Positions 49,118 to 52,530 of a DNA stretch of 64,000 bases are shown one piece after another. The notes below the pieces were generated by a model that worked only from the letters and a program-made list of their open reading frames with translations, was not told where the DNA came from and did no database searches. The stretch's first letter is position 1, and every line of letters starts with the position of its first letter. The DNA is from Bacteroidia bacterium (GTDB lineage: Bacteria > Bacteroidota > Bacteroidia > B-17B0 > Aurantibacillaceae), in the NCBI GenBank assembly GCA_014378485.1, contig JACMNO010000097.1, positions 1 to 64,000 on the forward strand, in the 5' to 3' direction. The position numbers were made by a program, and so were the translations under genes.

Positions 49118-50023
49118 ATGTCCATTAAAGTAAATAATATCACCAAACTATACGGCACTCAAAAAGCGCTGAATAATATTTCTTTTGAGATTGGCACAAA
49201 TGAAATTGTTGGTTTCCTTGGTCCTAATGGAGCAGGAAAAAGTACCATGATGAAAATTTTGACCTGTTACATTCCACCATCAGAGGGCTCTGCCACTGTT
49301 TGTGGCTATAATACCAACGACCAGAGTATTGAAGTGAGAAAACAAATCGGTTACCTGCCGGAACATAATCCTTTGTACTTGGACATGTACGTGAAAGAAT
49401 TTTTAGAATTTATTGGGGGTTTGTATCATATAAAAAATAAAAAGGAACGTGTTAAAGAAATGATAGAGGCAACCGGCTTACAGGTTGAACAAAATAAAAA
49501 GATCGGAGCTTTATCAAAAGGATACCGTCAGCGCGTTGGTTTGGCGCAGGCCATGATTCATGATCCAAAAGTATTGATCATGGATGAGCCTACAACAGGC
49601 TTAGATCCTAATCAACTGGAAGAAATACGCGGCCTTATTAAAAAACTTGGAAAACAAAAAACGGTGATGCTAAGTACTCACATTATGCAGGAAGTAGAAG
49701 CGGTATGTGATAGGGTGATAATTATTAATAAAGGAGAAATTGTTGCAAACGATACCACTGAAACGTTACAAAAAAATACCACCAAACAAATTATAACGGT
49801 TGAATTTGATAGTGAAGTCTCTGTCAATTCTCTTAAATTAATTGCTGGTGTGGAGGATGCCATTTTAATTGAAGGAAAAACCTGGAAGATCACTTCAGAT
49901 GTAGAAAATGATGTTCGTAAAGAACTATTCAATTACGCTGTCAAAAATAATTTAAGTGTGATGACTATGAATAAGGAAGAGCAAAAACTGGAAGATGTGT
50001 TTAAAGCATTAACCAAAAAATAA
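49118..50023 (+). CDS. gldA: ABC transporter ATP-binding protein, GldA-like
   Basis: A 301-residue ATPase. Walker A GPNGAGKST (35-43), signature LSKGYRQR (132-139), Walker B VLIMDEP (152-158) and switch His188 (STHIM). The sequence YLPEHNPLYLDMYVKEFLEF and the C-terminal domain match the GldA pattern of gliding flavobacteria, where GldA works with GldF and GldG. Those partners are not next to it here, so the assignment is by sequence pattern; another ABC-2 exporter ATPase is possible. The YhcG-type nuclease gene follows after 16 bp on the same strand. Confidence 0.8.
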   Translation: MSIKVNNITKLYGTQKALNNISFEIGTNEIVGFLGPNGAGKSTMMKILTCYIPPSEGSATVCGYNTNDQSIEVRKQIGYLPEHNPLYLDMYVKEFLEFIGGLYHIKNKKERVKEMIEATGLQVEQNKKIGALSKGYRQRVGLAQAMIHDPKVLIMDEPTTGLDPNQLEEIRGLIKKLGKQKTVMLSTHIMQEVEAVCDRVIIINKGEIVANDTTETLQKNTTKQIITVEFDSEVSVNSLKLIAGVEDAILIEGKTWKITSDVENDVRKELFNYAVKNNLSVMTMNKEEQKLEDVFKALTKK

Positions 50024-50039
50024 GATTCAGTAGTAACAA

Positions 50040-51116
50040 ATGAAAAAAACTACGGCTGTAATAAAAATAAAAAAAACATCAAAATCTAAAGTTGTAAAAC
50101 CTAATTTATTTAAAGATGTAAAATCTTTAATTGAAAAAACAAAGGTGCAGGTTGCTTATAATATAAACAGTAATTTAGTTATTTTAAACTGGCATATTGG
50201 GAAAAGAATACAAGAAGAAATCCTAAAAAATAAGCGAGCAGAATACGGAAGTCAAATTGTTGCGACACTGTCGCAACAATTGACGGAAGAATACGGCCAA
50301 GGGTATACAAAATCAACATTAACCCGAATGCTTGTGTTTACAAGGTATTACACAACACAACAAAAAGTTGCGACACTGTCGCAACAATTCAGCTGGAGCC
50401 ATATCATTGAGTTTTTAACTATCAAAGATGGCATTGAACGCTCCTTTTATGAACAAATAGCAGCCATCGAGAAATGGGGTGTAAGGCAACTGCGTGAAAG
50501 AATAAACAGCATGTTGTTTCAACGAACAGCTATTTCTAAAAAGCCTAAGGCACTTATAAAACAAGAACTCAAAAAACAAATTTCTAATAAAGAAATAACA
50601 AATGCCGAATTAGTTTTTAAGGATCCTTACTTATTAGATTTTTTAGGACTTAAGGATACATACAGTGAAAAAGATATGGAAAGCTGCATACTTAATTCAC
50701 TGCAAAAATTTATTATTGAATTAGGCTCTGACTTTGCCTTTATCGCCAGGCAAAAACGCATTATTATCGATTCGGAAGATTTTCGTATTGACTTACTATT
50801 TTATCACAGAGGTCTGAAAAGATTAATTGCTATTGATTTAAAATTAGGAAAATTTAAAGCGTCATATAAAGGTCAAATGGAACTATATTTAAGATGGCTT
50901 GAAAAGTATGAAGTTAGGGAGGGTGAAAACGCACCCATGGGTTTAATTCTATGTGCTGAAAAATCTGAGGAACATATTGAACTGCTTCAACTTGAAAAAA
51001 GTAACATTAAAGTAGCAGAATATTTAACCGCCCTGCCTCCTAAAAAATTACTTGAAAGAAAATTACATCAGGCTGTTATTTCGGCTCAAAAAAAATTTAA
51101 TATCAAACTAAAATAA
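50040..51116 (+). CDS. YhcG-type protein: DUF1016 N-terminal domain plus PDDEXK nuclease
   Basis: A 358-residue protein. A basic N-terminus (1-22) precedes a DUF1016-type helical domain (about 25-165; NLVILNWHIGKRI, GYTKSTLTRMLVFTRYY, QQFSWSHI) and a C-terminal PD-(D/E)xK nuclease fold. Likely active-site residues are D251 (RIDLLFYHR) and D266-x-K268 (AIDLKLGKF), with Q279 in GQMELYLRW. Asp replaces the usual Glu. YhcG-like proteins often travel with mobile elements or restriction systems; their role is not settled. Unusually, VATLSQQ occurs twice (74-80 and 110-116), coded by the same palindromic DNA. Squeezed between gldA (16 bp) and the ALDH gene (1 bp). Confidence 0.85.
   Translation: MKKTTAVIKIKKTSKSKVVKPNLFKDVKSLIEKTKVQVAYNINSNLVILNWHIGKRIQEEILKNKRAEYGSQIVATLSQQLTEEYGQGYTKSTLTRMLVFTRYYTTQQKVATLSQQFSWSHIIEFLTIKDGIERSFYEQIAAIEKWGVRQLRERINSMLFQRTAISKKPKALIKQELKKQISNKEITNAELVFKDPYLLDFLGLKDTYSEKDMESCILNSLQKFIIELGSDFAFIARQKRIIIDSEDFRIDLLFYHRGLKRLIAIDLKLGKFKASYKGQMELYLRWLEKYEVREGENAPMGLILCAEKSEEHIELLQLEKSNIKVAEYLTALPPKKLLERKLHQAVISAQKKFNIKLK
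50255..50281. repeat. Palindrome copy 1 inside the YhcG-type gene
   Basis: The core GTTGCGACACTGTCGCAAC lies at 50259-50277. It is extended by AATT on both sides into a perfect 27-bp palindrome (13-bp arms around a central C). It encodes VATLSQQ using GCG, CTG and TCG codons, which are GC-rich choices for this AT-rich gene. Confidence 0.95.
50367..50389. repeat. Palindrome copy 2 inside the YhcG-type gene
   Basis: The same 19-bp core (50367-50385) followed by the same AATT, exactly 108 bp (36 codons) after copy 1 and in the same frame, again coding VATLSQQ. The flanks differ, so identity is limited to the palindrome plus 4 bp. Confidence 0.95.
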
Positions 51117-51117
51117 T

Positions 51118-52530
51118 TTGAATCATTATAGTATCTACTCTGCCGGTAAATTTATTACCTCGAACCATATTCTTGAAATAAAAAATCCTTTCGACGATTT
51201 CTTAGTTGCCACAACCTACCTGGCGGATGAACAAATTTTAGAAGAAGCGATCACAAAAGCTTTATCATTAAAACAGGAATTACAGGATTTATCTTCTCTC
51301 AAAAAATTCAATATCCTAAAACAAATTTCTGAAGAAATTACTTCAAAAAAAGATTACCTCGCAAAAATATTGTGCCTTGAATCAGGAAAGCCAATGAAAT
51401 ACGCTTTAGCGGAGATCGAGCGTTCTGCACAAACCTTTTTGATAGCGGCTGAAGAAAGTAAACGGATTCCGAAAGAATGCATGTCACTGGACTGGACAAC
51501 AAACGGAGAAAGAAAAGAAGCTATCGTTCATTATTTTCCGATTGGTTTAGTGGCAGGAATTGCTCCGTTTAATTTTCCGATGAATTTAGCCGTACATAAA
51601 ATTGCACCGGCCATTGCCAGCGGTTGTGCGATTATTTTAAAACCAGCAAGCCGCACGCCGTTATCCTGTTTAGAATTAGCAAAGATCATTGATCAAACCG
51701 ATCTGCCGAAAGGGGCCGTTTCTATTTTACCAATGGACAGAGAAACAGGCAACTTATTGGTGACCGATCAACGTTTTAAATTACTCAGCTTTACCGGCTC
51801 GCCAGATATAGGCTGGAAAATGAAAACCCAATGCGGAAAGAAAAAAATTGTACTCGAATTAGGAGGAAATGCAGCCACGATCATTTCTCAAACTGCTGAT
51901 CTGAAAGATGCGCTTAATAAATCACTAATGGGAGCTTTCGCTTATAGCGGACAAATTTGTATCCATGCGCAACGCTTCATTGTTCATGCTTCCATTTATC
52001 ACATGTTTACTGATCAACTTAAAGCACTGACCCTTCAGTTAAAAAATGGAGATCCGCTAAATATGTCAACTGATGTTTCAAATATGATTGATGAATCAAA
52101 TGCAATACGTGTTGAAGAATGGATTCAGGAAGCTATTCAGCAGGGAGCACAGTTAATTTGTGGTGGAAAAAGAACAGGAAGTTTTATGGAACCAACCATT
52201 TTGATTAATTGCAACCACAACATGAAAGTGTACTCAGAAGAAGTCTTTGGCCCTGTGATTTGTATTAATTCATACGAAACAATTGCTGAGGCTATCAGCC
52301 AGGCAAATAATACCCGATTTGGTTTGCAATGCGGAGTATTCACCAGTGACATTGCTGAACTCGATCAATGTTTCAAACAAATTGAAGTCGGTGGTGTGAT
52401 ACACAATCATGTGCCTACATTACGGTATGATCAAATGCCTTATGGTGGCGTAAAAGATAGCGGCCTTGGAAGAGAAGGTGTAAAATATGCTATGCTGGAT
52501 ATGTTAGAACCAAAAGTGTTGGTAAAATAA
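51118..52530 (+). CDS. Aldehyde dehydrogenase family protein
   Basis: A 470-residue NAD(P)-dependent aldehyde dehydrogenase. Catalytic Cys281 (SGQICIHAQRF), general base Glu247 (LELGGN), Asn152 (PFNFP) and FTGSPDIG are all in place. The start is a TTG at 51118, 1 bp after the stop of the nuclease gene; the next ATG is about 90 codons in and would remove the fold's N-terminus, so TTG is preferred. It belongs to the semialdehyde-dehydrogenase-like branch by general pattern; the aldehyde is unknown. Ends at a symmetrical hairpin. Confidence 0.92.
   Translation: MNHYSIYSAGKFITSNHILEIKNPFDDFLVATTYLADEQILEEAITKALSLKQELQDLSSLKKFNILKQISEEITSKKDYLAKILCLESGKPMKYALAEIERSAQTFLIAAEESKRIPKECMSLDWTTNGERKEAIVHYFPIGLVAGIAPFNFPMNLAVHKIAPAIASGCAIILKPASRTPLSCLELAKIIDQTDLPKGAVSILPMDRETGNLLVTDQRFKLLSFTGSPDIGWKMKTQCGKKKIVLELGGNAATIISQTADLKDALNKSLMGAFAYSGQICIHAQRFIVHASIYHMFTDQLKALTLQLKNGDPLNMSTDVSNMIDESNAIRVEEWIQEAIQQGAQLICGGKRTGSFMEPTILINCNHNMKVYSEEVFGPVICINSYETIAEAISQANNTRFGLQCGVFTSDIAELDQCFKQIEVGGVIHNHVPTLRYDQMPYGGVKDSGLGREGVKYAMLDMLEPKVLVK

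What the first reader, a model, noticed from the sequence alone, without database searches (positions are those of the whole stretch)
50255..50389. Identical palindrome twice, in frame, inside a YhcG-type nuclease gene
GTTGCGACACTGTCGCAAC occurs at 50259 and 50367, 108 bp apart, always as VATLSQQ. The DNA is identical, including GC-rich codons unusual for this gene, while flanking protein and DNA differ. Protein selection alone would not fix synonymous sites or perfect symmetry. It may be a binding site for the encoded protein or a regulator, an mRNA hairpin controlling expression, or a target of the nuclease itself. Two sites 108 bp apart could be looped together.
Basis: partly seen in the sequence, partly recalled or inferred. 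Interest (0 to 1): 0.72.

Follow-up and report, generated by a model that had tools for sequence, protein, structure and literature searches.

The report
Nuclease gene carrying its own address
A widespread, uncharacterised family of bacterial nucleases appears to recognise a DNA palindrome written in frame inside its own gene, and the palindrome and the protein's DNA-reading residues change together across evolution, probably so that a gene that keeps moving between genomes carries its own control switch.

Summary
The 19-mer is the core of a 27-nt odd palindrome (site 1, 50255-50281, perfect) present twice, 36 codons apart, in a YhcG/DUF1016 gene (50040-51116) and nowhere else in the genome. 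Homologues in many phyla keep 27-nt palindromes at the same codons. Both arms covary, even when that changes amino acids (172 of 211 genes; about 0.01 per gene expected by chance). Mismatches show no G-U preference, so selection acts on DNA, not on an mRNA hairpin. Half-site bases covary sharply with five protein residues outside the palindromes: 92, 96, 120, 123 and 148. The resulting code was written down first and then held in 24 plasmid genes (pos7 13/13, pos5 15/15, pos3 16/17, pos4 12/16; two genes overlapped the training set). The N-terminal domain resembles ParB/Noc DNA-binding domains by fold and by profile, and the specificity positions lie at or next to those of ParB. I conclude that the encoded protein binds the palindromes in its own gene. 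The most likely role is portable autoregulation: the gene is inserted inside an operon, and 9 relatives have the two neighbours adjacent. Self-cleavage or homing remains open. I found no report of this.

The parts
50040..51116 (+). YhcG/DUF1016-family gene, 358 aa: DUF1016_N domain (residues 26-162) plus YhcG PD-(D/E)XK nuclease domain (192-341)
   Evidence: PADLOC name PDC-S02; only copy in the genome
50255..50281 (.). Palindrome site 1, 27 nt, 13/13 Watson-Crick pairs, codes IVATLSQQ
50363..50389 (.). Palindrome site 2, 27 nt, 11/13 pairs (inner 19 nt perfect), codes KVATLSQQF just before the conserved WSH helix
50313..50315 (+). Codon 92 (Ser), specificity residue for half-site position 7 (R->G, K/Q->C, S->T)
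50325..50327 (+). Codon 96 (Arg), specificity residue for position 5 (and 6)
50397..50399 (+). Codon 120 (Ser), specificity residue for position 3; aligns with ParB 201
   Evidence: PMC7383237
50406..50408 (+). Codon 123 (Ile), specificity residue for position 4
50481..50483 (+). Codon 148 (Val), residue covarying with position 3
49118..50023 (+). Upstream ABC-transporter ATPase gene; ends 16 bp before the nuclease gene
51118..52530 (+). Downstream aldehyde-dehydrogenase-family gene; starts 1 bp after the nuclease gene; adjacent to the ABC gene in 9 relatives without the nuclease gene

Best explanation
The two palindromes are the cognate DNA sites of the protein encoded by the gene. The DUF1016_N domain is a ParB/Noc-like DNA-binding domain that, presumably as a dimer, reads each 27-bp palindrome. 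Residues 92 and 96 (one helix) read bases 7 and 5-6 from the centre; residues 120, 123 and 148 read bases 3-4. The site is kept inside the reading frame, so it travels with the gene, and site and specificity residues drift together. Binding most likely serves negative autoregulation: dimers on one to four sites in the first third of the gene, sometimes also in the 5' leader, block transcription. This would keep a potentially harmful nuclease low in whatever operon the gene lands in. Status of the steps: self-recognition is strongly supported by covariation and an advance prediction (about 0.9). A ParB-like fold is supported (about 0.85). Autoregulation is inferred (about 0.55-0.6).
For: Arms covary: at site 2, 71 of 80 homologues have >=10/13 pairs in 66 different sequences, mean 11.2 pairs against 8.65 when right arms are shuffled. 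The covariation score is 0.500 against 0.134 +/- 0.017 shuffled. A free-arm pattern in 395 genomes finds 41 sites, nearly all complementary, with 0 control matches; most lie in DUF1016 genes. Synonymous shuffling keeps 6.4 of the observed 11.85 pairs. No wobble bias. Five base-residue pairs are outliers (0.26-0.445; background sd 0.04; maximum 0.242 in within-clade permutations). The code is near-deterministic, held in plasmid genes and holds at each site class. Arms of sites 1 and 2 match within genes beyond shuffles. Fold hits: the top 14 are all ParB/Noc DNA-binding domains. Profile alignment E 6e-5 puts S120 on ParB Gly201, a known specificity position (PMC7383237). Upstream palindromes resembling a gene's own site lie only within about 125 bp of the ORF start (L042, L259, L231, L082) although 1500 bp were scanned. 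The gene is inserted inside an operon.
Against: No binding or expression was measured. Foldseek E-values are weak (0.06-0.4) although the top hits agree. 39 of 211 genes have no palindrome at >=11/13. Site 1 obeys the position-7 rule less well (25/34) than site 2 (93/103). The nuclease active site is conserved, which a pure repressor would not need. A few lone palindromes lie outside DUF1016 genes, one in a genome without such a gene (L094/G308). Of the upstream copies, L082's lie in what looks like an array and L231's match is partial (6/8).
Confidence: 0.62

Rival explanations
1. Self-targeting nuclease: the protein binds the palindrome in its own gene and cuts or nicks there. This would drive gene conversion between copies, homing into related loci, or self-removal, and would explain lone palindromes as scars.
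For: The active-site residues E227, D251, D/E266 and K268 are nearly invariant in 211 genes. Lone palindromes occur between genes, and at one empty site (L356) a palindrome is joined to what resembles the 3' end of the deleted nuclease gene. Arms of the two sites within a gene resemble each other more than shuffles do. The gene is patchy and mobile.
Against: Carriers keep 1-4 intact cognate sites over long evolution, which is costly if they are cut. Homing endonucleases normally destroy their site in carriers (general knowledge). Cognate-like copies upstream sit just before the start of the gene, as operators do.
Confidence: 0.25
2. The palindrome works as an RNA hairpin in the mRNA, controlling translation or mRNA decay, or acting as a guide-like RNA for the nuclease.
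For: A 27-nt palindrome in a transcript would form a strong hairpin; some copies lie in the 5' leader (L259, L231).
Against: G-T and A-C mismatches are equally rare (22 vs 29 in 186 sites; 20 vs 22). The code links bases to residues in helices that match a DNA-binding fold. No Rfam match.
Confidence: 0.05
3. A DNA-loading or marking site: the protein nucleates at its own gene, as ParB does at parS, to tether, partition or protect the element that carries it, or to keep the nuclease docked until phage attack.
For: ParB-like reading domain; the PADLOC library files the family as a phage-defence candidate, PDC-S02; genes are common on plasmids and next to restriction genes.
Against: No CTPase domain was found, so ParB-type spreading is unlikely; many copies are chromosomal and solitary.
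Confidence: 0.12
4. A protein repeat (VATLSQQ twice) kept by selection on the protein, with the palindrome as a by-product or maintained by template-switch repair of imperfect palindromes.
For: The motif lies in two helices of the domain.
Against: The protein residues change to keep DNA symmetry (IVQTLSAQL, IVVSLIRQL, IPHPPGGEL); synonymous shuffles lose symmetry; mutational symmetry alone cannot produce a residue-to-base code.
Confidence: 0.03

Closest known systems
ParB/Noc proteins and their parS/NBS palindromes
   Same: Predicted all-helical DNA-binding domain; palindromic site read by helices equivalent to ParB alpha4 and alpha6; S120 aligns with ParB 201 and S92 next to ParB 173, both known specificity residues
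   Different: No ParB N-terminal CTPase domain found; fused to a PD-(D/E)XK nuclease; the site lies inside the family's own gene and drifts with the protein; odd 27-nt site instead of an even 16-bp one
YhcG / DUF1016 family (PF17761 + PF06250; PADLOC PDC-S02)
   Same: Both Pfam domains found far above cut-off; many PDC-S02 models match
   Different: Until now the N-terminal domain was described as about 200 aa, alpha-helical, without confident structural matches (PMC1189080); no cognate site was found described
Intragenic operators such as lacO2 in lacZ (own knowledge)
   Same: Operator-like palindromes inside a coding sequence
   Different: Here the site is in the regulator's own gene, is family-wide across phyla, and constrains the amino-acid sequence
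Rickettsia palindromic elements and REPs
   Same: In-frame palindromes in coding genes; occasional intergenic copies and arrays
   Different: Not an insertion scattered over many genes: fixed codon positions in one gene family, with the sequence dictated by the encoded protein's specificity residues
Homing endonucleases
   Same: Sequence-specific nuclease carried by a mobile gene
   Different: The recognition site is kept intact inside the gene instead of being split by it; cleavage was not tested

Membership tests
YhcG/DUF1016 (PF17761 + PF06250) | DUF1016_N domain | tested here: met
   E 1e-40, 139 bits vs cut-off 32.8
YhcG/DUF1016 (PF17761 + PF06250) | YhcG_C PD-(D/E)XK nuclease domain with catalytic residues | tested here: met
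   E 8.8e-46; E227, D251, D/E266, K268 conserved in about 211 genes
ParB/Noc DNA-binding superfamily (fold level) | Helical HTH domain of ParB/KorB type | tested here: met
   AF2 pLDDT 92.5; Foldseek top 14 hits all ParB/Noc, probability 0.94-1.00 but E 0.06-0.4; hhalign E 6e-5, probability 65% over 72 columns
ParB/Noc DNA-binding superfamily (fold level) | Specificity residues at positions 173 (alpha4) and 201 (alpha6) | tested here: met
   Covarying residue 120 aligns with 201; 92 is one column from 173 (PMC7383237)
ParB family proper | N-terminal ParB CTPase domain | tested here: not met
   Only DUF1016_N and YhcG_C found in Pfam; hence not filed as a ParB protein
ParB family proper | CTP-dependent spreading from the site | not testable with these tools
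   needs biochemistry
Autorepressor with intragenic operator | The protein recognises a site in its own gene | tested here: met
   Covariation code with advance prediction; direct binding not measured
Autorepressor with intragenic operator | Binding lowers expression of the gene | not testable with these tools
   needs a reporter assay
Phage-defence system PDC-S02 | Protection from phage | not testable with these tools
   PADLOC lists the family as a candidate
RNA hairpin regulator | G-U pairs tolerated above A-C mismatches | tested here: not met
   22 vs 29; 20 vs 22
Homing endonuclease | Carrier gene interrupts its own recognition site | tested here: not met
   Intact sites lie inside the gene

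The most novel reading that the evidence does not exclude
The family is a self-addressed nuclease: each gene carries, in frame, the exact target of its own nuclease. Recognition of that address, by docking or conditional cutting, is the core of its mechanism (defence, competition between elements, or homing by gene conversion), and the coding sequence is subordinate to the target sequence.
Probability: 0.3. Interest if true: 0.93.

Novelty: new variant of a known kind. Interest (0 to 1): 0.85.

Why it matters
It proposes a first molecular activity for DUF1016_N, a very widespread domain of unknown function: a ParB-like sequence-specific DNA reader, with a residue-to-base code that can be tested by mutation. 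It also appears to be an unusual case in which a protein's DNA target is embedded in its own coding sequence across phyla, so that the DNA site shapes the amino acids. Such a self-contained cassette would explain how a single-gene nuclease can move into foreign operons and still be controlled.

Tried and rejected
mRNA hairpin: rejected by the absence of wobble bias and no Rfam match. Selection on the protein repeat alone: rejected by covariation that changes amino acids and by synonymous shuffles. A genome-wide repeat such as REP: rejected for this genome, which has two copies only, though stray intergenic copies exist elsewhere. Viral contigs with the free-arm pattern gave mostly chance matches with non-complementary arms, a useful negative control. 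No PDB sequence homologue. Whole-protein Foldseek was dominated by the nuclease domain; the N domain alone was needed. Literature searches for DUF1016 or YhcG with palindromes, PDC-S02 and intragenic operators of nucleases found no report of the arrangement; the library is open-access only.

Full report
What is there. The gene at 50040-51116 encodes 358 aa with DUF1016_N (26-162) and a YhcG PD-(D/E)XK nuclease domain (192-341); PADLOC places the family among phage-defence candidates, PDC-S02. It is the only such gene in the 3.53 Mb genome. The 19-mer is at 50259 and 50367 and nowhere else. The symmetric unit is an odd 27-nt palindrome, AATTGTTGCGACA-C-TGTCGCAACAATT, perfect at site 1 and 11/13 at site 2.

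Conservation is at the DNA level. Eighty homologues from many phyla have palindromes at the same two codon positions with different arms, for example GTGCAGACACTGTCTGCAC (VQTLSAQ), GTCGTATCACTGATACGAC (VVSLIRQ) and GTCTCAACACTGTTGAGAC (VSTLLRQ). At site 2, 71 of 80 keep at least 10 of 13 pairs in 66 distinct sequences; shuffling right arms drops the mean from 11.2 to 8.65. The pair-counting tool gives a covariation score of 0.500 against 0.134 +/- 0.017 for shuffles and at most 0.148 for slid structures. Replacing codons by synonyms from the same gene leaves 6.4 pairs instead of 11.85. Between the window gene and L003 (204 of 1077 nt different) the 54 palindrome bases are identical.

Specific to this family. 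A pattern with free arms (AATTGT-N5-CANTG-N5-ACAATT) in 395 Bacteroidota genomes gave 41 sites, nearly all with complementary arms, and none for the reversed control; most lie in frame in DUF1016 genes. The same pattern in 2.9 million viral contigs gave mostly non-complementary chance hits, and the complementary ones were mainly in DUF1016 genes. Among 211 unique genes, 172 hold at least one palindrome at 11/13 or better, against about 0.01 per gene by chance. Subfamilies with a longer domain carry tandem palindromes of quite different sequence but the same 27-nt AATT...AATT frame (L187, L288, L290, L313).

DNA, not RNA. In 186 distinct sites, pairs 2-12 show 1901 Watson-Crick, 22 G-T and 29 A-C combinations. 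RNA stems tolerate G-U well above A-C, so the symmetry is not kept for an mRNA hairpin.

The protein reads its own site. Mutual information between half-site bases and every protein column not encoded by the palindromes gives five outliers: base 7 with residue 92, base 4 with 123, base 3 with 148 and 120, base 5 with 96 (0.26-0.445; background sd 0.04). Permuting sites among genes within 20 clades never exceeded 0.242 (60 permutations). The tables are near-deterministic: R92 with G7 (33.9: 0.8, weighted), K or Q92 with C7, S92 mostly with T7; Y, N, L, S or Q96 with A5; R96 with C or T5; R123 with C4; S120 with A3; G120 with C3. I wrote the rules down before fetching 24 plasmid genes from Cyanobacteria, Planctomycetota, Fusobacteriota, Proteobacteria and others. 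Position 7 was right in 13/13, position 5 in 15/15, position 3 in 16/17, position 4 in 12/16; two of the genes were identical to training genes. By site class, position 7 is right in 93/103 at site 2, 25/34 at site 1 and 33/36 for palindromes in inserts (largely training data). The window gene fits: S92-T7, R96-C5, S120-A3, V148-A3.

What kind of domain. AF2 of the domain alone has pLDDT 92.5. Its best 14 PDB matches are all ParB or Noc DNA-binding domains, including Noc on its palindrome (6y93), with probability 0.94-1.00 but weak E-values. Profile alignment with ParB from the same class gives E 6e-5 over 72 columns, matching LSWSHIIEFLTIKD to ISMGHARSLINIED. In ParB/Noc, residues 173 (helix alpha4) and 201 set the preference for outer and inner half-site bases (PMC7383237). 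S120 aligns with 201, and S92 lies one column from 173. The covarying residues were found without knowledge of ParB, so this agreement is independent support.

How it probably works. The nuclease catalytic residues are conserved, so the protein should be kept low. The gene sits 16 bp behind an ABC-transporter gene and 1 bp before an aldehyde-dehydrogenase-family gene; in nine other genomes of the genus those two are neighbours. On plasmids, starts often overlap or nearly touch the stop of an unrelated upstream gene such as an integrase, HsdS or methyltransferase gene. A gene that lands in foreign operons cannot rely on a promoter-linked operator; an operator inside the coding sequence always comes along. 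In some genes a palindrome resembling the gene's own site also lies just upstream of the start (L042, L259, L231, L082), and no such site was found elsewhere in 1.5 kb of upstream flank. I therefore favour autoregulation. Binding, dimerisation and repression are inferred.

What remains open. Self-cleavage or homing is not excluded. One empty site (L356) holds a lone palindrome joined to what resembles the 3' end of the nuclease gene, and a genome of the same class without the gene (G308) has an intergenic palindrome with the arms of its relatives' genes. I found no published description of the arrangement in the open-access library; the 2005 survey that named YhcG a nuclease states that its N-terminal domain lacked confident structural matches (PMC1189080).

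Noticed in passing
L108:1501-1660: Intergenic array of four related palindromes about 45 bp apart next to a large restriction/helicase-like gene, in a genome (G373) whose single DUF1016 gene has a different palindrome (CTCCAACCA).
   Followed up: partly
L356:409-488 (G405): At the empty ABC/ALDH junction of a same-genus genome, a lone palindrome followed by sequence resembling the 3' end of the nuclease gene: looks like a deletion scar at a short shared sequence (ACAATTCA).
   Followed up: partly
L094:1501-1527 (G308): Lone intergenic palindrome TTGACGCA-A-TGCGTCAA in a genome without any DUF1016 gene, identical in its arms to the in-gene sites of the same genus (L092, L093).
   Followed up: partly
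L187, L290, L109, L313: Subfamilies with an insert before the WSH helix carry 2-3 tandem in-frame palindromes coding repeats such as IRQTVSAEF; the amino-acid repeat appears to be a by-product of the DNA site.
   Followed up: partly
L057, L111: Genes whose site 1 and site 2 differ; in L057 only site 2 fits the code of the encoded protein, which suggests recombination or recent specificity change.
   Followed up: no
L225, L186, L241, L255: A Bacteroidales subfamily (LPRLAESLTREFGKGF...) has lost or strongly degraded the palindrome; whether its regulation or nuclease differs is unknown.
   Followed up: no
L336, L338, L346, L340: On plasmids the gene sits in restriction-modification operons, between or beside hsdS, methyltransferase and restriction/helicase subunit genes with 4-bp overlaps.
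   Followed up: no
L082 upstream, positions -190 to -95 from the ORF: Three palindrome-like units in tandem directly upstream of the gene, possibly the remains of another family member.
   Followed up: no
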